Of a DNA stretch of 64,000 nt, positions 6,642 to 52,197 are shown piece by piece. The DNA is taken from assembly GCA_003112755.1 (NCBI GenBank), contig BFBT01000001.1, positions 2,480,001-2,544,000 of the forward strand, given 5' to 3'. How positions within the stretch are numbered: the first letter of the stretch is position 1; every line of letters starts with the position of its first letter. The DNA comes from Lawsonibacter asaccharolyticus (GTDB lineage: Bacteria > Bacillota > Clostridia > Oscillospirales > Oscillospiraceae). The notes beneath the pieces were generated by a model. The model did no database searches and was not told the DNA's origin. It worked only from the letters and a program-made list of their open reading frames with translations. A program made the position numbers and the translations under genes.

Positions 6642-7199
6642 TTAAGTTTCTCCTCTCCTTAACTTAAATTTCTGGATCTCGCGGGCCACAAGACCACTCA
6701 GGCTCTTCCCCAGATCTTTGCCGCTGCGGTTCGTGGCGATGTCGCCGGTGGACAGGTCCACCGCTGCTATACGAAACTCCATCCATCCATGGAGCGATAG
6801 CTTAAAGTCCCGGTGCTTCTTCAGCTTTTGAAGCTGGGCCAGAGCGTCCGGGTCGGCCTGATCACACAGGACCACGGCCGACAGATAGGTGCACATATGC
6901 TGGGAATGGGGGCGGATGCGTGGCATCCCGTCCTCCAGCGTGCGGGCCTGAAGCTCCACCAGGCTGGTGAAGTCCAGCCGGGGGAGGGAGTATAGGTAGA
7001 GGTATTCGTGGGTCTCCGCCGCCCACAGCTCCGCCTTTTTGATCAGTACATACTGAGAGCCGCGGGAGTGATAGGCGCACAGTGCTTTCAGGGGGGAGCC
7101 GTCTTGGACGGGCTCTACGTCAAAATAGGCTGTGTATGCCTCCGAGAGGCGGGCGAGGAGGGTATCGCGCAGTTCAGACACAGGGGACCTCATTTCCAT
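6642..7199 (-). CDS. Unknown soluble protein co-transcribed with cstA
   Basis: About 185 residues, mixed alpha/beta, without membrane segments or signal peptide. I do not recognise a family. It contains KAELWAAETHEYLYLYSL, and ends with a basic helix (VAREIQKFKLRRGET). Its stop codon abuts the cstA start, and one promoter (7286-7314) serves both, so a role connected to CstA use or regulation is plausible but unproven. Start choice is uncertain: ATG 7199 or 7193 fit the promoter, neither has a strong ribosome site, and an open frame reaches 7250. Confidence 0.6.
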   Translation of the reverse strand: MEMRSPVSELRDTLLARLSEAYTAYFDVEPVQDGSPLKALCAYHSRGSQYVLIKKAELWAAETHEYLYLYSLPRLDFTSLVELQARTLEDGMPRIRPHSQHMCTYLSAVVLCDQADPDALAQLQKLKKHRDFKLSLHGWMEFRIAAVDLSTGDIATNRSGKDLGKSLSGLVAREIQKFKLRRGET

Positions 7200-44860: not shown

Positions 44861-47800
44861 TTATCGTGCGCTGCGCAGGGCGTCCCGGACCAGGTCAGCA
44901 TAGGTGCGCATGTCAGTGATCTGGATCCACCGCTCCAGACTGCCGCTCCAGCGGTAGGTGTGGCAGTTGGTGGCCTCCTGCACGTCTTCATAGTACCAGG
45001 CGTCCTCCGGGTTGTCCGGCCAGTGGATCATGTCGTCCAGCATGTGATCGGTGTCGGGGGCGCGGTCCAGCACCTCATTGATGAGGGCCATGACCTCAGC
45101 GCGGGTGATGCTCCGGTCGGGGCCGTAGGTGCCGTCGGGATAACCGGCGATCCAGCCCTCAGCGGCGGCGCGGTTGATGTACTCCCGGGCCCAGTGGCCG
45201 GAGATATCGCTGAACTTGTCCGGGCCGGAGTACCGGGCGTCGGAGAACTGGGCGGCCACCACAGCGAACTCGGCACGGGTGATGTAGGCGCCGGGGTCAA
45301 AGTCGCCGCCGGTGCGGCCGGTCATGATGCCGCCGTTGTTCAGGGTGGTGATGGAGTAGAAGGACCAGCGGCTGGACTCCACATCAGGGAAGGGGTTCCG
45401 CTCGGTAATGTAGTCCGCCCGGGACGCGTCGGTGAGCAGGCGGAAGAAGATGGTGGCCACTTCCTCACGGGTGATGGGGTCGTTGGGCTGGACGGTGCCG
45501 TCGGGGTAGCCGGAGACGTAGGCGAAGTGGTCCTCCTTGTTCAGCTGAGGTGTTCCGCCGGAGCCGCCGTGCCCGCGGTCGTCGTCATCGTCATCATCGT
45601 CATCCTCATCCTCCCAGAACAGGGCGAAGGGGGAGAAGGAGTCCACAGTGAAGCGGATGCCTTCATCCATGGCCACCAGGGTGCCGTCCTCAGTGGAGTA
45701 GAGCTCCATGGTGTAGTTGCCTTGCTCCAGGTCGGTGTTGCTGTTGCGGTCCAGGCCCGCATAGTGGACCAGCTGGAACTCGCTGTTCCGATCCGTTCCA
45801 TCGGGGTAGGGCCAGTAGAGGGTGATCTCCCCGTCGGTGGTGACATAGGCGTTGCCGTTGCTGGTGTCCACCAGGTCCAGGTAGCGCAGCTCCGCACTGT
45901 GGTCCTCGGTGATGGAGTTGAATCCATCCACCGCGCTGTTGTGCAGGGTATTGCCCTGGTCGGGGACGATGCTGTCCACCAGCAGATGCACAGCATCAGG
46001 ATCAGCGACCTCCAGCCTGCTCTCATTGATGTAGAGAGCGGCGTCTGCGGGGATATGGGCGGTGATGCTGTTCACCTCATTGGTGGGGGGCTCATTGACC
46101 ACAGGGGTGGTGGCGGTGTCGAGATCAGTCACGCCCCGGATGGTCAGCGTACCGGATCCCACCGCCGCGCTGTACTGCTCCGTGTCTGCGCCTACCGTAA
46201 GCTCGGCCTTGACCCGCTGCTGCTCCAGATCTCCGGCATAGATGGTCATGTCATACTGCCGGAACACGCTGTTCACCTGGACAGTAAAGTCGTCACTGGT
46301 CATGAAGGAATCAGGGTCGTCCTGATCGGTGAACTGGAGGCGGATGGGGACCTCGCCATTGGGGGTCTCAGCGGGCAGGATGCGGTAGATGTAGCGGTCA
46401 TAGGCCATGCTGGTGTTGCCGGGATTGTTGTCGTACCGCTCCAGCTTCCAGATCCGCTGTTCTCCGCCGAAGTTGTAAGTAAAGGTCAGATATTTGGACA
46501 GGTCCACCACCTGCTGTCCATTTTCATTGGTGACAACATCGGCGGGATCTGCGTGTTTGATCAGCCGCTCATTCAAATCACTGGGCAGGGTGATGTAGAA
46601 GCCTGGCACGGGCAGTCCGTTGTCGGTGGCGCCGATCTCGTTTCCGCTGCCGTTGACCACGCTCTCATAGCTGCTGCCGCCGGTGTAGATGGTGATATCG
46701 GCGGGCTGGATCATGATCTGCCGGGCGTCGGGGGTACCGTCGCCGTTCCGGTCATAGGCCCACACGGCGTAGACCGTGGCCACCGCCGGGATGTTGACTT
46801 CGGATACCAGAGTGGGCAGCTGTTCGCCCGCGTCATAGATCTTCTCATGGTTGTCGGTGGTGGTCCAGCCCAGGAAGAGGACCGCTGCACCCTCGGTGTC
46901 AGTATGGGTGGGGGCGGTGTAGTCATCTTCTTCCCCCAGTTCATAACCAGTCTGCTGGGCCAGGTCCGGGACTACGAATGTGGTCTCCCCGGCGATGCGG
47001 CCGCCGTTGGCGTCATAGGTCAGGGAGTAAGCGGTCACCGGCACCGGATCAGTCGTATCTGTAACTGCGTCCTCGATCTCATCTGCGGTCACGGCAGCGG
47101 TATTCGTCACGCCTGCCGCCACGTCTGTCTGCGCCGCGGTATAGGCATAGGTGATGATGACCTTGTCGCCCACTCCAATGCTGGAGATGGTGTAGCTGCT
47201 GTCGCTAAGGGTATGATCGATGTCCCCTACCCGGATCACCGTGCCGGCGCTCCACAGGGTGTCTTCAATCGTCACATCAGTCAGGGGCGCATTGCCGGTA
47301 TTGCGCACTGTGATCGTGTAGTGGATCTGCTCTCCCACACGGACAGATGCCTCCTGAGCTGTTTTCTCCACCGTCATGGCGGGTGCCGCCGCAGTAAGTC
47401 TGTAGGTGTAGGTGGTGCTGGTCCCCGCCGTCAATGCCGCCCCGGCCACGGGGGACTCATCATCCCACGCGCCGCTCAGGATGTGCGCTGCATCAGGCTC
47501 AACTTTTGTGGTGTCAGGAATATTCGTCAAAGTCGGCGCGGGGCTGACCTCGACCCATTTGTCAGAGGTCTCATCATATTCCGACAAACGATAGACCTGT
47601 TCAATTTCCGTGCTTCCGTTTGCCCAGGTGCCCCCCACGACCTGATAGATCACTTGGGCCTGGTACTGATCCGGGGTACCGTCGCCGCCATCTTCGCCGC
47701 CGACTTTGTCCACGGCGTAATACAGCTTCAGCGTCACGATATCTTCCGGCTTCTCAATTTTGGTCAGCGTACCGGTCGTATTGGAGAGCGCAGGGTCCAG

Positions 47801-50170
47801 ACAGTACCCCTCATACGCTTTGGGGGTGGCCGTTACATCTGCCCCGATCGCCCCGGAGAAGCGCTCCGTCTCCGTCGCGGACACAGGATAAGTTCCATCG
47901 TCGTTTGCCTTGTAGTGCTCCACGACATACAGAACATTGCCGGGGACAATGGGGGTGGTGCTTTTGGCAAAGGTATAGGTGTACGTCACATCATCGGTCC
48001 CGGAAACTGTGGCAGGAGGCGTGGTATCCCAGCCGCCCTGCGTTCCGTCCGTGCCACCATAGCCAGCGTCCGGCTTCATTCCGGTGGGGGCTGTCAGGTA
48101 GGCGCTGCCGTTCATGTCCCACTTGCCGTCCTTCATCAGCGTCACATAGGTGACTCTGGCGGCGCTGGTGCCATCCTCCCAGGTCCCGTTTACCACCTGG
48201 AAGGTCACTTTCTTCTGGTACTTGTCCGGGACACCGTCACCGCCGCCATTCTCGCCGCCGACTTCATCCAGGCTGTAAACCGCCGTGATCTCCACATTGC
48301 CGGTGAGCGTGCCGGAGGTCACCCCCTTCACCGTGTCTTTGGCATAGCTCTGACCTTTATATGTGATCGAGTCAGGGATCTGGCCGCTCACATCATAGGG
48401 AGACTCCTTGGACATCTCTTCGCTGACATAAGAAGTTTGGATCTCCGTTTGCTCCGCATCATCCATCACATACTTGACGGTCACCGTGTACTGGTCCTCA
48501 CAGACCACCTGGAACGTGACCGCCTCTTTGCTCCCGTTTTTCAGCTTCCAGCCGTTGTGATACACATAAGTGACTGTGGCCATATCTTTCGCGGGGGTGT
48601 GAGTCGCACTGGTGGTCTCATTATACGCCGTCACGAAGCGCTCAGAGGAAATGGTGACCGTATATTCCAGATGGCGGTCCACCACCCGGGAGGATGTGGT
48701 ATAATCCCCTGCCGTCAAGGTCATCGGCTGAGAACCTGCATGGCCCGCGGCCTGGTTGGTGCAGCTCACGGTGACTTTGATGCTGTTCAGAAATTCAGGC
48801 GTCCCGGCCTCCACCCACTTGGCGGTCAGGGTCAGATCGCTGCCGCGGATGACGACCTTTCCGCCTGCGTCCACCTTGGAGCCGTCCTCATATCCTGTTC
48901 CGGAAATGGTCCAGCCGTCGAAGACATAGCCCGTAGCCAGCGCGGCCTGGACCGCCTCGTCAGAAGGAATGGCGGCTTGGACTTCCTCATTGCGCTTCAG
49001 ACCGGTCTGAGTTTCAGGAACAGCGTACTCAGTCAGTGCCCCGCTTTGGTCGCCCCAATCATACTGGATCTGATAGGTGTTCTCATCTTCCTTTAACTCC
49101 AGCAGCAGATAGAAGGGGTAAATGGTGTTCCCGCCTAGATAGCTGTTGTTCCAGTTGGCTTCACTAGGTTTTGAGGTGGGATAGTTTCGGCCTAAGCCGC
49201 CGACATTGCGCCAATGATTAAAATCATTTTCGTCAATGGAAACGTGCGTTACAGCGGAATAATCCCCGTTTTCGTCCGGCTCAATGGTGACAGCGTCACC
49301 ATATTCGACCACACCGCACCCGGTATAGTTTCCGCACACCAGACGGTAGGAGGAGAGATAGTAGCCCTCCGCCACCCGGATGTCCAGGCCGCTGCGGATC
49401 AGCTGGCCCGCGTTGGCCGCCTCCGAATCATCCAGGGCATCCTGAGGGGATACTTCTTTCCCTGTATAAGTGACATCCTTCGCCCCGGCAGACACCGTTA
49501 CCAGAGAGGGGTCCGTGATCTCTTCATTACCCCATCCATAATATCCGTCAAAGCTCCAATACACGGGCCACCAGTTGCGCCACTGGTCCCCACGTTCATT
49601 CTCATCGGTCTTTTCCTCCAGCGTCCAGGTATAGGTCCACTGGTAGCAGGCATCACCATGCTGGTGCTCTTCCTTGCTGCAGGTCAATGTGTAACATCCG
49701 GTTTTGAGAGAACATTCGTGCCTGCACTCGGTGGGGCCTTCGGTTTTGTCAATTACTTGGTATCCCCATGCCCAATCTAGGATGCTGAAGGAGTGCCACG
49801 TGCACCCTGTATCGTCTTTATGGAACCCGAGCCTATTATAATGGTCCGGATTGTCCTCCTTCGTACACTTCACCCACTGTGTGGGATAGCAGTCGTCATT
49901 GTGCTCATGTACACAGTCATGGCTGTAGCAGCTGTCCAGAGAGTGGGCGTGTTCCTCCTCTTTGCAGGTAAGATCTCCCCGCTCAGCGTCGGGCCCTACC
50001 CACTCTGTCCCATCCGGAATGTTTTCCGGCGGCTTTTGATCGGGGTCGGTCGTTTCAAACGTATCTCCTATCTCATACTCTGACCCTCCCGGCGCCGCAA
50101 AGGCGGACACCGGAAGCAGGGACAGCACCATGCACAGGGTCAGCAATACGGCCAAGAATCGCTTTTTCAT
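44861..50170 (-). CDS. Giant SLH-anchored multidomain surface protein
   Basis: 1769 residues. In order: signal peptide (1-26, ending AFA); a Cys/His-rich block (about 69-185) with repeated C-x3-EH-x-H-x4-CY motifs (CKEEEHAHSLDSCY, CSKEEHQHGDACY); InlB B-repeat-like unit (about 360-455, GYVFDGWTISG to LTAKWV); several 60-100-residue beta units separated by Asp/Gly-rich DGTPD linkers, including one MucBP-like (about 745-810) and one DUF11-like (about 930-1010); a second GWTT repeat (about 1060-1140); a run of nine aspartates near 1525; and three SLH domains (about 1545-1720) that would bind secondary wall polymer. AGGAGG precedes ATG 50170. It lies 64 bp behind the recombinase-like gene, with no room for its own promoter. 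Confidence 0.9.
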   Translation of the reverse strand: MKKRFLAVLLTLCMVLSLLPVSAFAAPGGSEYEIGDTFETTDPDQKPPENIPDGTEWVGPDAERGDLTCKEEEHAHSLDSCYSHDCVHEHNDDCYPTQWVKCTKEDNPDHYNRLGFHKDDTGCTWHSFSILDWAWGYQVIDKTEGPTECRHECSLKTGCYTLTCSKEEHQHGDACYQWTYTWTLEEKTDENERGDQWRNWWPVYWSFDGYYGWGNEEITDPSLVTVSAGAKDVTYTGKEVSPQDALDDSEAANAGQLIRSGLDIRVAEGYYLSSYRLVCGNYTGCGVVEYGDAVTIEPDENGDYSAVTHVSIDENDFNHWRNVGGLGRNYPTSKPSEANWNNSYLGGNTIYPFYLLLELKEDENTYQIQYDWGDQSGALTEYAVPETQTGLKRNEEVQAAIPSDEAVQAALATGYVFDGWTISGTGYEDGSKVDAGGKVVIRGSDLTLTAKWVEAGTPEFLNSIKVTVSCTNQAAGHAGSQPMTLTAGDYTTSSRVVDRHLEYTVTISSERFVTAYNETTSATHTPAKDMATVTYVYHNGWKLKNGSKEAVTFQVVCEDQYTVTVKYVMDDAEQTEIQTSYVSEEMSKESPYDVSGQIPDSITYKGQSYAKDTVKGVTSGTLTGNVEITAVYSLDEVGGENGGGDGVPDKYQKKVTFQVVNGTWEDGTSAARVTYVTLMKDGKWDMNGSAYLTAPTGMKPDAGYGGTDGTQGGWDTTPPATVSGTDDVTYTYTFAKSTTPIVPGNVLYVVEHYKANDDGTYPVSATETERFSGAIGADVTATPKAYEGYCLDPALSNTTGTLTKIEKPEDIVTLKLYYAVDKVGGEDGGDGTPDQYQAQVIYQVVGGTWANGSTEIEQVYRLSEYDETSDKWVEVSPAPTLTNIPDTTKVEPDAAHILSGAWDDESPVAGAALTAGTSTTYTYRLTAAAPAMTVEKTAQEASVRVGEQIHYTITVRNTGNAPLTDVTIEDTLWSAGTVIRVGDIDHTLSDSSYTISSIGVGDKVIITYAYTAAQTDVAAGVTNTAAVTADEIEDAVTDTTDPVPVTAYSLTYDANGGRIAGETTFVVPDLAQQTGYELGEEDDYTAPTHTDTEGAAVLFLGWTTTDNHEKIYDAGEQLPTLVSEVNIPAVATVYAVWAYDRNGDGTPDARQIMIQPADITIYTGGSSYESVVNGSGNEIGATDNGLPVPGFYITLPSDLNERLIKHADPADVVTNENGQQVVDLSKYLTFTYNFGGEQRIWKLERYDNNPGNTSMAYDRYIYRILPAETPNGEVPIRLQFTDQDDPDSFMTSDDFTVQVNSVFRQYDMTIYAGDLEQQRVKAELTVGADTEQYSAAVGSGTLTIRGVTDLDTATTPVVNEPPTNEVNSITAHIPADAALYINESRLEVADPDAVHLLVDSIVPDQGNTLHNSAVDGFNSITEDHSAELRYLDLVDTSNGNAYVTTDGEITLYWPYPDGTDRNSEFQLVHYAGLDRNSNTDLEQGNYTMELYSTEDGTLVAMDEGIRFTVDSFSPFALFWEDEDDDDDDDDDRGHGGSGGTPQLNKEDHFAYVSGYPDGTVQPNDPITREEVATIFFRLLTDASRADYITERNPFPDVESSRWSFYSITTLNNGGIMTGRTGGDFDPGAYITRAEFAVVAAQFSDARYSGPDKFSDISGHWAREYINRAAAEGWIAGYPDGTYGPDRSITRAEVMALINEVLDRAPDTDHMLDDMIHWPDNPEDAWYYEDVQEATNCHTYRWSGSLERWIQITDMRTYADLVRDALRSAR

Positions 50171-50234: not shown

Positions 50235-51062
50235 TCACATCATCCCCACCCCCTTTCCGGCATCCCAGCCCACGGAGAACTGTTCCGCCTCCATCATCTG
50301 GTCGAAGGCCTGGACCACCAGCTGGTCCACACTGACCCGGATGGCATCCTGGGTCTCCTGCCACAGCCGGCGCAGACAGCGTGGGTTCCCTTTTTCCTCC
50401 GGCACCCGGGCGTCCCGGCACAGGGACCGGATCTCGCCCGTCACCTGGGTCCGCCGCATTGGCTGCCCGTTCCGGCTGCGGAACACCGGTCCTGCGGTGA
50501 TGCCCTGCCGGGCCGCATAGCCCCGCAGCTCCTCCGCCAGCGGCGGCGGCAGACGCACGGGGCTGGGTCCCCGCCCGTCCAGCGCCTCCGCCGTCAGCCG
50601 GGGCAGCTCCCCCACCGACAGGCCCGTGCTGCCGAATACCTTCACCAGCAGGTAGAGCCGCTCCTTCTCCAGAACCCGGGCGGTGGACAGCAGACGCAGA
50701 TACTCCCCGCGGGTCAGCTCCGGCCGCTCCACCTCCGCCGGGGGCGGGAGGGCGGCGGTGGCCTGGAGTTCCCGGTGGCCCAGATAGGTCATCAGGCCGT
50801 TGGCCGCCGCCAGCCGCACATTGATAGTCCGGGGAAGATACCCCTGGTCCTCCAGCGTCTCCCGCCAGCGGTCCAGCGTCCCGCGGCCTACCCGCTTGTC
50901 CGGCGGCAGCGACCGGTACAGCCCATAGATGCTCCGCCGGTACGCCGCCAGGGTGTCTGCGCTCCGGCCCTGCTGGCGCAGGGTGTCCAGATAGGCGTCC
51001 ATGGCCTCCGGCGTGAGGCATACCTCCCCTGCCGGGGCCTCCTGTTCCATCACCAGTTCCAT
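50235..51062 (-). CDS. Catalytically degenerate tyrosine recombinase paralogue
   Basis: About 275 residues aligned with phage-integrase/XerCD proteins. A SAM-like N-terminal domain (LRQQGRSADTLAAYRRSIYG) and the catalytic fold are recognisable. The key residues are lost: the first Arg position reads GLSVGEL instead of GIRVSEV, the H-x-L-R-H box reads RCLRR, and the Tyr is missing. It is probably a DNA-binding helper or regulator. ATG 51062 follows GAGGGGAG; the frame is open to 51221 across the repeat. It sits between the invertible segment and the SLH gene, and the two are likely one transcript. Confidence 0.8.
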   Translation of the reverse strand: MELVMEQEAPAGEVCLTPEAMDAYLDTLRQQGRSADTLAAYRRSIYGLYRSLPPDKRVGRGTLDRWRETLEDQGYLPRTINVRLAAANGLMTYLGHRELQATAALPPPAEVERPELTRGEYLRLLSTARVLEKERLYLLVKVFGSTGLSVGELPRLTAEALDGRGPSPVRLPPPLAEELRGYAARQGITAGPVFRSRNGQPMRRTQVTGEIRSLCRDARVPEEKGNPRCLRRLWQETQDAIRVSVDQLVVQAFDQMMEAEQFSVGWDAGKGVGMM

Positions 51063-51090: not shown

Positions 51091-51111
51091 TAGGCAAAAT
51101 CAATATTTTGC
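51091..51111 (+). repeat. Left inverted repeat of invertible segment (IRL)
   Basis: 21 bp that match the reverse complement of 51334-51354 at 20 positions; the shared core is CAAAATCAATATTTTGC. The core is itself two inverted arms (GCAAAAT and ATTTTGC) around a CAAT centre, the usual form of a tyrosine-recombinase crossover site. Confidence 0.9.
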
Positions 51112-51146
51112 CGCGTTCTATCCCGGGGAAGGAGCTGTTCGGGCAG

Positions 51147-51170
51147 AAAAAAAGAGCGCCGGCGGCGCTC
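51147..51170 (-). terminator. Leftward terminator inside the invertible segment
   Basis: GAGCGCC (51154-51160), GGC loop, GGCGCTC (51164-51170); on the minus strand seven T's follow. It would stop read-through from the recombinase gene into the surface-protein operon. Confidence 0.85.
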
Positions 51171-51196
51171 CTGAGGGAAAAAGGGCGTGAAGATCG

Positions 51197-51227
51197 AGCC
51201 GTATGAGCAATTTGGGCTCATATGGCT
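51197..51227. promoter_or_regulatory. Inverted repeat upstream of the switch promoter
   Basis: AGCCGTATGAGC (51197-51208) and GCTCATATGGCT (51216-51227) pair at 11 of 12 positions, 30 bp upstream of the -35. Candidate regulator site that moves with the promoter. Confidence 0.5.
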
Positions 51228-51256
51228 GGTCTTTGCGCAAATTTAGCAGCTCCAGC

Positions 51257-51285
51257 TTGAATTTTCCATCGGCCTGTGCTATAAT
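51257..51285 (+). promoter_or_regulatory. Switch promoter, now pointing rightward (OFF for SLH operon)
   Basis: TTGAAT (51257-51262), 17 bp, TATAAT (51280-51285). It currently fires antisense to the recombinase gene. Confidence 0.85.
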
Positions 51286-51333
51286 CTACCAGAAATCTAT
51301 GTAGCCTCCTGCGGCCTTTCCTGGTCGCTGGAT

Positions 51334-51354
51334 GCAAAATATTGATTTTGTCTA
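51334..51354 (-). repeat. Right inverted repeat of invertible segment (IRR)
   Basis: Reverse complement of 51091-51111 with one mismatch. Its outer three bases are the TAG stop codon of the recombinase gene; the left repeat also starts TAG, so either orientation keeps the stop. Confidence 0.9.
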
Positions 51355-52197
51355 GCAGACGAGGCGCAGGCGGTCCAGATCCCGGCGGTGCTGGGCACCG
51401 GTGGAGATGAGATAGATGCGGGTGGTCTCAATGCTGGAGTGCCCCAGGACATCGGCCAGCTTGGCCACGTCCCGGGTGGCCTGATAGAAGGTGCGCGCAA
51501 AGAGATGGCGCAGGTTGTGAGGGAAGACCTTGGTGGGGGCCACCCCGGCCCGGAGGCACAGGCGCTTCATCTCCGCCCAGATCTGCCGCCTGGACAGAGG
51601 CTTGCCGCTTTTGGTGAGGAAGATCTCGCCGGAAGCGGTTTTTTGCTGTCTGGCGTACTTGAGCAGCTTGCGGCACAGCTTGCCGGGGAGGAGGATGGTG
51701 CGGACCTTGCCCTTGAGGGCGATATCCGCCTGACCGGAACGGGCGGCCTCCACAGTGATATAGCGCACCTCGCTGACTCGGATGCCGGCGGCGCAGATGG
51801 TCTCCATGACCAGGGCCAGGCGGTCCCGGCCCAAGGTGCGGGCGGTGTCCAGCAGGCGCTGGTACTCCTGGCGGCTCAGCTCCCGCTCCTCGCTCTGAAA
51901 GAGTCTGCGCTGCACCCGCAGGGCGCGGACACGGCAGTCCTCCAGGCCGATGAAACGGAGAAAGGTGTTGAGGGCGGCCAGCATGGAGTTGATGGTGGCG
52001 GGGCGGTAGCCGGAGCGGACCAAGTGGGCCTTCCAGCCCGTGACCGCCTCCCGGTTCACCGGCGCCCCCGCCAGCCACTCCAGAAAGGCCCCTGCGTCCC
52101 GCAGGTACTTCTCCACTGTCCCCGCGCTCCGCTCCTCCTCCGCCAGCCTCCGGGCAAAGGCAGACAGATGTTCCTGGGGCACATGGTGATCTTTCAT
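51352..52197 (-). CDS. Tyrosine recombinase (putative invertase of the promoter switch)
   Basis: 281 residues, XerC/D-like. N-terminal SAM-like domain (RSAGTVEKYLRDAGAFLEWL) and a catalytic domain with all key residues: Arg in AGIRVSEV, H-x-L-R-H in FPHNLRHLFA, His in LGHSS, and nucleophile Tyr in TRIYLIS. AAGGGGAG precedes ATG 52197. Its stop lies inside the right inverted repeat. The closeness to the repeats makes it the likely enzyme that flips 51112-51333. Confidence 0.9.
   Translation of the reverse strand: MKDHHVPQEHLSAFARRLAEEERSAGTVEKYLRDAGAFLEWLAGAPVNREAVTGWKAHLVRSGYRPATINSMLAALNTFLRFIGLEDCRVRALRVQRRLFQSEERELSRQEYQRLLDTARTLGRDRLALVMETICAAGIRVSEVRYITVEAARSGQADIALKGKVRTILLPGKLCRKLLKYARQQKTASGEIFLTKSGKPLSRRQIWAEMKRLCLRAGVAPTKVFPHNLRHLFARTFYQATRDVAKLADVLGHSSIETTRIYLISTGAQHRRDLDRLRLVC

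What the first reader, a model, noticed from the sequence alone, without database searches (positions are those of the whole stretch)
51091..51354. Invertible promoter switch upstream of a giant surface-protein operon, present in the OFF orientation
Two 21-bp inverted repeats (20/21 identical; core CAAAATCAATATTTTGC) bound 222 bp. Each repeat is two inverted arms with an asymmetric CAAT/ATTG centre, the form of a tyrosine-recombinase crossover site, and the two centres point in opposite directions, so recombination gives inversion. The segment carries a consensus rightward promoter (51257-51285) and a leftward terminator with seven T's (51147-51170). As read here, leftward transcription is blocked and the promoter faces away. 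After inversion the -10 would lie at about 51160-51165, roughly 100 bases before the 51062 start, driving the recombinase-like gene and then the SLH protein. The adjacent intact tyrosine recombinase supplies the enzyme. Invertible promoters controlling surface structures are known in gut bacteria; this exact cassette I have not seen described.
Basis: partly seen in the sequence, partly recalled or inferred. Interest (0 to 1): 0.95.

Follow-up and report, generated by a model that had tools for sequence, protein, structure and literature searches.

The report
Flippable promoter with dead recombinase
In this bacterium (likely a gut commensal), a short stretch of DNA bounded by inverted repeats and carrying a predicted promoter lies between an intact recombinase gene, whose product is predicted to flip it, and genes for a recombinase look-alike without the catalytic residues and a giant predicted surface protein, so flipping would likely switch that protein on and off; two near-identical cassettes of this kind in a related genome carry the stretch in opposite directions.

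Summary
It is not a one-off. Behind the adjacent recombinase gene (TR1) and its relatives, 59 of 65 testable loci carry an inverted-repeat pair that no shuffle of 100 reached. Among 38 segments, 31 have a clear promoter side: 21 face TR1, 10 the target. In one related single-contig genome two ~99%-identical TR1-switch-TR2 cassettes carry the same 252-bp segment in opposite orientations, exchanged inside a shared 13-nt core. So this cassette family inverts; inversion in the window's own strain is inferred. The new element is TR2, the first gene behind the switch: a single-clade, conserved tyrosine-recombinase paralogue that has lost the catalytic Arg, His and Tyr and has its own C-terminal signature. 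It lies directly behind TR1 and the switch in 14 of 23 loci examined. I propose that it is made only in the ON state and feeds back on the switch (untested). Invertible promoters are a known kind; the co-switched dead recombinase makes this a new variant.

The parts
51091..51111 (+). left recombination site (21-bp inverted repeat; CAAAAT-CAAT-ATTTTG core)
51334..51354 (-). right recombination site; contains the stop codon of TR1
51112..51333 (.). predicted invertible segment (222 bp), here in the OFF orientation
   Evidence: (homologous cassette with the segment inverted between two copies in G007)
51257..51285 (+). predicted promoter TTGAAT-17-TATAAT with extended -10, facing TR1 (away from TR2/SLH)
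51146..51172 (-). leftward intrinsic terminator-like hairpin with T-run, between TR1 and TR2 in this orientation
   Evidence: such matches are not above chance in the region as a whole
51197..51227 (.). central hairpin of the segment (11 Watson-Crick pairs plus one G-T, 7-nt loop, read by eye); in 15 of 38 segments a hairpin passes as a bidirectional terminator, in 12 of these 15 at mid-segment (0.49-0.54); the window's does not pass (no A/T runs)
   Evidence: sequence
51352..52197 (-). TR1, intact tyrosine recombinase (R,K,H,R,H,Y all present), predicted invertase of the switch
50235..51062 (-). TR2, tyrosine-recombinase paralogue without catalytic R1/H/Y, first gene behind the switch
44861..50170 (-). 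1769-aa predicted surface protein with a DUF11/DUF7507-type repeat and three SLH stretches; predicted switched target, 64 bp behind TR2

Best explanation
A 264-bp element made of two 21-bp inverted repeats and a predicted promoter that here points away from the surface-protein gene is predicted to be flipped by the tyrosine recombinase TR1 encoded beside it, and flipping would switch on a two-gene unit made of TR2, a recombinase paralogue that lacks the catalytic residues, and a 1769-aa SLH-domain protein, likely on the cell surface. In the present (OFF) orientation the promoter faces TR1 and a terminator-like hairpin lies between TR1 and TR2; after inversion the -10 would lie about 100 nt before the TR2 start and the hairpin would no longer stop leftward transcription. 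Cassettes differ in site sequence and each has its own recombinase, so the cassettes of one genome would flip independently (inferred). TR2, made only in the ON state, probably keeps DNA binding and acts back on TR1 or its sites, biasing or locking the switch (inferred, not tested).
For: Sequence anatomy. Geometry conserved: behind 59 of 65 TR1-type genes (45-100% identity to TR1; from the genus and other families of the order) a repeat pair starts within about 120 nt of the gene end and was reached by none of 100 shuffles (29 of 33, 30 of 32; 11 loci dropped because the contig or fetched stretch ended; identical gene ends counted once, but some loci are close relatives, e.g. L032/L033 and L034/L035). 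Both orientations occur: 38 segments, 31 with a clear promoter side, 21 facing TR1 and 10 facing the target; the -10 lies 30-60 bp from the repeat it faces in 29 of 31. Direct natural inversion: G007 copies L084 and L085, flanks 98.6-99.7% identical, 252-bp segment 99.2% identical on the opposite strand; outer-arm differences stay with the flanks and inner-arm differences move, which maps the exchange to AAAATAAAAATTT. Homologous segments in opposite orientation in other genomes (L039 against L087, L088, L090; L086 against L094). Of the downstream genes scanned, most are surface-type: SLH, VWA, LRR/MucBP proteins, glycosyltransferase or ABC-2 genes; also one EAL-GGDEF protein. The window's 16-nt site core occurs exactly only twice in the own genome.
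Against: No reads, transcripts or second genome of this species were available, so inversion in this strain is unseen. No promoter for TR1 was found by the scan. Repeats were not significant in 4 of 65 loci (L091, L037, fragment L086_7023, L072) and marginal, 1 of 100 shuffles, in L089 and L126. TR2 is not obligatory: 23 of the 38 segments have no TR2 match behind them in the sequence fetched, and 9 of 23 TR2 loci have no TR1 and switch directly upstream. The feedback role of TR2 has no direct evidence. The terminator is a chance-level match. The G007 pair itself has weak promoter calls (score difference 1.0) and is not among the 31 clear cases.
Confidence: 0.86

Rival explanations
1. The switch is real, but TR2 is only a passenger: a degenerate duplicate of TR1 caught in the switched unit, with no role in switching.
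For: TR2 is absent behind 23 of 38 segments, and 9 of 23 TR2 loci lie without TR1 and switch directly upstream; TR2 evolves faster than TR1 (median pairwise dN/dS 0.43 against 0.27); the L092 copy departs from the others after residue 254 and the database holds frame-shifted versions.
Against: TR2 forms one clade (100/100 support); 24 database members picked from the best 120 are 49-58% identical to it with 48 invariant columns, among them a C-terminal signature TR1 lacks; some pairs have dN/dS down to 0.11; its distances follow those of its TR1 partner (Mantel r 0.65, reached by 1 of 5000 permutations, 14 pairs). Relic genes rarely look like this.
Confidence: 0.2
2. TR2 is a transcription factor or nucleoid-type protein for the surface operon (DNA binding kept, catalysis lost), not a regulator of inversion.
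For: Catalytic residues gone while the N-terminal core-binding fold is kept; it sits in the switched unit; TR2 without a neighbouring TR1 exists.
Against: Its commonest place is directly behind a switch next to its own paralogue, and its divergence follows TR1, which is more readily explained by shared sites or partner contacts; shared host history can also give that.
Confidence: 0.3
3. The inverted repeats are a dead or locked remnant, or a regulatory palindrome, in this genome; the promoter is stuck in one direction.
For: Only one orientation is seen in this genome; no strain data.
Against: TR1 is intact with all catalytic residues, the repeats are 20/21 identical, a sister cassette of the same build has inverted recently, and the same 16-nt core borders the switch of another species (L074).
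Confidence: 0.1
4. Chance repeats in an AT-rich gap between two GC-rich genes.
For: The repeats themselves are AT-rich and lie in the gap between genes.
Against: 0 of 100 dinucleotide shuffles reach the score, and 59 of 65 loci show the same; best pair in the window.
Confidence: 0.01

Closest known systems
Invertons of gut bacteria, in particular 'inverton group 139' with 'invertase group 35' (PMC11892184; section 8 and passages read)
   Same: Clostridia, short inverted repeats, a tyrosine recombinase near nearly every inverton of the group (33 invertons, 32 from Clostridia); cell-surface genes enriched near invertons.
   Different: That paper links by statistics and does not, in the parts read, describe a catalytically dead paralogue inside the switched unit; its repeat motif is in supplements I could not open, so identity of the families is untested. 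Flavonifractor does not occur in its main text.
E. coli fim switch (FimB/FimE, fimS)
   Same: Promoter inside an invertible element; recombinase genes in the locus; a terminator behind fimE that depends on orientation (passages of PMC2784873), resembling the OFF-state hairpin behind TR1 here.
   Different: Both Fim recombinases are active and outside the switched unit (recalled); here the second one is dead and inside it. TR1 scores far below the NCBIfam cut-offs of the tyrosine-type DNA invertase models.
C. difficile cwpV and flagellar switches with RecV (PMC2784873, PMC5386303; passages read)
   Same: 21-bp imperfect inverted repeats 154-195 bp apart, an Xer-type tyrosine recombinase, a large cell-wall protein (CwpV) as target.
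   Different: RecV acts on several unlike sites; in cwpV the promoter lies outside and a terminator is switched; no co-switched dead paralogue is described in the passages read.
XerA/XerD and lambda-integrase fold
   Same: TR2's predicted structure (mean pLDDT 90) finds XerA, lambda Int and Tn1549 Int first.
   Different: The C-terminal part where TR1 has LGH...Y is one long predicted helix (residues 227-263) carrying its own conserved motif.

Membership tests
Inverton / invertible promoter switch | inverted repeats around a short promoter-bearing segment | tested here: met
   (promoter by consensus only)
Inverton / invertible promoter switch | segment found in both orientations | tested here: inconclusive
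   Met for the cassette family (near-identical copies in G007; both promoter directions); not testable for the window's own species, one genome held and no reads.
Inverton / invertible promoter switch | site-specific recombinase able to flip it | not testable with these tools
   TR1 is adjacent and keeps all six catalytic residues; activity needs an assay.
Inverton / invertible promoter switch | flipping changes expression of the neighbouring gene | not testable with these tools
   Predicted from promoter position only.
XerC / XerD / XerA equivalogs (for TR1) | score above the curated NCBIfam cut-off | tested here: not met
   133 bits against 220 (XerA), 117 against 330 (XerD), 107 against 335 (XerC)
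Tyrosine-type DNA invertase NF007370/NF007371, fim type by recall (for TR1) | score above the curated cut-off | tested here: not met
   30.5 against 221 and 27.8 against 222 bits
Catalytically active tyrosine recombinase (for TR2) | R-K-H-R-H/W-Y catalytic residues | tested here: not met
   of 19 distinct locus TR2s (window included, one partial) first Arg lost in 18, His of HxxR lost in 19, Tyr lost in 19; the same three lost in 12 of 12 non-chimeric database hits picked
Inverton group 139 / invertase group 35 (PMC11892184) | repeat motif and invertase cluster of that group | not testable with these tools
   motif and cluster members are in supplementary files; none could be opened
C. difficile RecV-type switch | recombinase is a RecV orthologue | not tested
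   RecV sequence not fetched

The most novel reading that the evidence does not exclude
A phase switch that reports its own state: the first protein made when the promoter flips ON is a catalytically dead copy of the flipping enzyme, which re-enters the recombination sites or the recombinase tetramer and locks, biases or times the ON state. This would be a built-in memory circuit made of an enzyme and its dead paralogue, repeated in many cassettes of the family.
Probability: 0.42. Interest if true: 0.78.

Novelty: new variant of a known kind. Interest (0 to 1): 0.62.

Why it matters
Phase variation of surface structures lets gut bacteria hedge against phages and immunity, but how such switches set their bias is known in few cases (recalled). 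This cassette gives a compact unit (enzyme, site pair, dead paralogue, target), so the role of a dead recombinase in setting ON/OFF bias can be tested directly in E. coli. It also gives a simple rule for finding such switches in genomes: look for inverted repeats directly behind a TR1-type gene, which held for 59 of 65 loci.

Tried and rejected
Near-exact copies of the segment in 60 related genomes: only the own copy in full; four short 24-29 nt matches to the terminator region, of no use. The 25-nt left site in viral contigs: none. TR1 in viral contigs: one relative, L149, cut off just behind the gene, not used. The genome-contig scan with TR2 gave 8 loci. Considered and rejected: chance repeats; TR2 as an active second recombinase; L082 as a broken TR2, which I had noted (note), but the aligned stretch re-read is open. 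Stops counted 'inside' some TR2 matches: in the six cases re-read (L082, L102, L120, L122, L123, L124) no stop lies inside the TR2 stretch; in L102 and L123 it lies at its end. ON against OFF does not visibly differ with TR2 presence (10 OFF and 5 ON with TR2; 14 OFF and 9 ON without; my count, weak promoter calls included). Paper searches for a dead recombinase in a phase switch showed none that I could recognise from listings and abstract starts; two listed papers (PMC4948785, PMC6837544) hold 'catalytically inactive' once each and were not opened. Text was read only as; of PMC2845655 only one entry of its reference list was seen, and it is not used. My promoter weights are ad hoc.

Full report
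What is there. The window holds, right to left: TR1 (52197-51352, minus strand), a 264-bp element (51354-51091), TR2 (51062-50235) and a 1769-aa SLH-domain protein (50170-44861). The element consists of two 21-bp inverted repeats, 20 of 21 identical, with 222 bp between. It is the best such pair of the window (score 18, next 14). It carries a promoter-like TTGAAT-17-TATAAT with a TG before the -10, pointing to TR1. Turned round in silico, the -10 falls at 51160-51165, about 100 nt before the TR2 start. The repeats are internally symmetric (CAAAAT-CAAT-ATTTTG). TR1's stop codon is the outer edge of the right repeat, so inversion leaves TR1 unchanged.

Is it a family? TR1 relatives were found in 60 of 61 genomes of the genus at E <= 0.001 (weak matches include recombinases of about 30% identity that need not be of this kind). 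For TR1-type loci of 45-100% identity with at least 350 bp behind the gene I searched for repeats behind the gene. In the first set 29 of 33 beat all of 100 shuffles; L089 was equalled by 1 of 100; L091, L037 and the fragment L086_7023 were not significant. In all further loci held, 30 of 32 did; L126 was equalled by 1 of 100 and L072 was not significant. Together 59 of 65; 11 loci were dropped for too little sequence behind the gene. The second set includes genomes of other families of the order. Loci with identical gene ends were counted once, but some remain close relatives. The own genome has three more loci of this kind (L079, L080, L081), each with another site sequence; the window's 16-nt core occurs exactly only at its own two sites. 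The same core borders the switch of L074, a Clostridiales MAG.

Does it invert? In the single-contig genome G007 two copies of a TR1-switch-TR2 cassette (L084: G007:C1:525000-539100; L085: G007:C1:1327800-1342800) are 98.6-99.7% identical over the adjoining flanks, while 252 bp are 99.2% identical on the opposite strand. The outer ends of the two sites (TCAC and TCAT) stay with the flanks and the inner ends move with the segment, which puts the exchange inside AAAATAAAAATTT. The mismatches between the copies (64 in 4.4 kb, 31 in 5.9 kb) argue against an assembly duplicate. Less close pairs in opposite orientation: L039 against L087, L088 and L090, and L086 (TR1 at 6642) against L094, at 70-74% identity. 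Over 38 segments (30 with a score of at least 12, and 8 added, two of them, L072 and L091, with weak repeats), 31 have a clear promoter side: 21 face TR1 and 10 face the target; in 29 of 31 the -10 lies 30-60 bp from the repeat it faces. The G007 pair scores OFF and ON by a small margin only and is not among the 31. Fifteen of 38 hold a hairpin with A-run and T-run fit to stop transcription both ways, 12 of these at mid-segment, against 17 of 760 shuffled segments; the window's central hairpin is not among them.

What is switched? Of the genes scanned behind the switch or behind TR2: SLH proteins (window, L073, L074, L080, two in L086, L089, L093, L097), VWA proteins (L090, L104, also L073 and L074), LRR_5 or MucBP proteins (L079, L098), a repeat protein (L088), ABC-2 transporter and glycosyltransferase genes (L084, L091, L112), an EAL-GGDEF protein (L094), an Hpt-domain protein (L116) and flagellar genes (L081). 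Two scanned genes gave no family (one each in L092 and L081), and one in L095 only weak Wzz-type matches. I scanned chosen downstream genes, not all.

TR2. Against the six catalytic positions of TR1, the 19 distinct TR2s read from loci (window included; L076 is partial) have lost the first Arg in 18 (L075 keeps it), the His of HxxR in 19 and the Tyr in 19; 12 of 12 non-chimeric database hits picked lost them as well (two further picked hits, P0008 and P0013, are TR1/TR2 chimeras). All 26 distinct TR1s keep R, K, H, R and Y, with one (L088_16179) having Tyr for the last His. TR2 has its own motif NPRCL(K/R)(K/R)L(W/Y)Q and a conserved end (..EQ..GW); 48 columns are invariant among 25 members picked from the search list. 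TR1 and TR2 are each one clade with 100/100 support (47 rows). Pairwise dN/dS (Nei-Gojobori, dS below 1.5): median 0.43 for TR2 (97 pairs, lowest 0.11) and 0.27 for TR1 (160 pairs). TR1 and TR2 distances correlate over 14 cassettes (r 0.65; 1 of 5000 permutations), but host history may add to this. The AlphaFold model of TR2 (mean pLDDT 90, pTM 0.63) ends in a 37-residue helix where TR1 has the LGH...Y part; Foldseek finds XerA, lambda Int and Tn1549 Int first, with TM-scores of 0.37-0.60 among the 19 matches at E <= 0.001. TR2 lies directly behind TR1 and the switch in 12 of 18 loci with at least 700 bp upstream, and L120 and L121 add two while L122-L124 add none: 14 of 23; repeats are weak in two of the 14 (L072, L091). 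Further TR2 matches without loci were not examined. Of the nine others, L071 keeps a TR2-facing promoter-like site and a lone site-like sequence (read by eye). In the database search 1604 proteins matched TR2 at E <= 0.001, TR1-like ones likely included; the best 120 were listed.

How it likely works. Shown: anatomy, family-wide geometry, natural inversion of a sister cassette, loss of catalytic residues in TR2. Inferred: TR1 flips its own element; ON transcription runs through TR2 into the SLH gene (64 bp apart, no promoter-like or terminator-like site found between them); TR2 acts back on the switch in the ON state. In OFF the promoter would also produce RNA antisense to the end of TR1, and the terminator-like hairpin behind TR1 is there only in OFF; for fimE, PMC2784873 (passages read) describes a terminator behind the gene in OFF cells and more FimE in ON cells. 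Whether TR1 is controlled in this way is open.

Known or new. Invertible promoters near surface genes are well known. PMC11892184 (section 8 and passages) reports a Clostridia inverton group (139) tied to one tyrosine-recombinase group (35), which may well be this family; I could not open its supplements. A co-switched dead paralogue was not recognisable in the listings. Hence: new variant of a known kind.

Organism. The genome carries no name. A genus mate, G010, has a contig of the same length and TR1/TR2 positions as a Pseudoflavonifractor capillosus An827 record (L078), so a Flavonifractor/Pseudoflavonifractor-type gut commensal is likely (inference).

Noticed in passing
own genome, L081 (G000:C1:296000-309000): A 45%-identical TR1 relative is followed by a 29-nt inverted-repeat pair and then flagellar genes (rod-protein domains and FliF), promoter side ON: a likely cis flagellar phase switch; L040 (G008) has a like repeat pair and the same rod-type protein behind it.
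   Followed up: partly
L073, L074, L079, L086, L115: A DUF4379 (treble-clef zinc finger repeat) gene recurs as first gene behind the switch or behind TR2, before the surface protein; function unknown.
   Followed up: partly
L094:8395-11643: A protein with EAL and GGDEF domains lies behind a switch that is in the ON orientation, recalling phase-variable c-di-GMP enzymes.
   Followed up: no
TR1-type genes in other families of the order (L127-L147): Repeat pairs directly behind the gene with ACATAAT-type as well as ACAAAAT-type arms: site types seem to go with the recombinase subgroup.
   Followed up: no
P0008, P0013, P0014: Database proteins joining a TR2 N-terminus to an active TR1 C-terminus, or the reverse, near the shared ELTRGEY motif (P0008 and P0013 read; P0014 only listed): assembly chimeras or real exchange between the neighbours.
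   Followed up: no
P0007, P0010, P0011, P0029, P0037: Frame-shifted or cut versions of the window's TR2 in the database; errors or real inactive alleles.
   Followed up: no
L032 against L033: 99.5% identical segments in the same orientation, but L032 is 41 bp longer and holds an extra copy of the site sequence.
   Followed up: no
L071, L075, L082, L100, L101, L102, L122-L124: TR2 genes with no TR1 and switch directly upstream; what controls them, and whether they act on a switch elsewhere, is open.
   Followed up: partly
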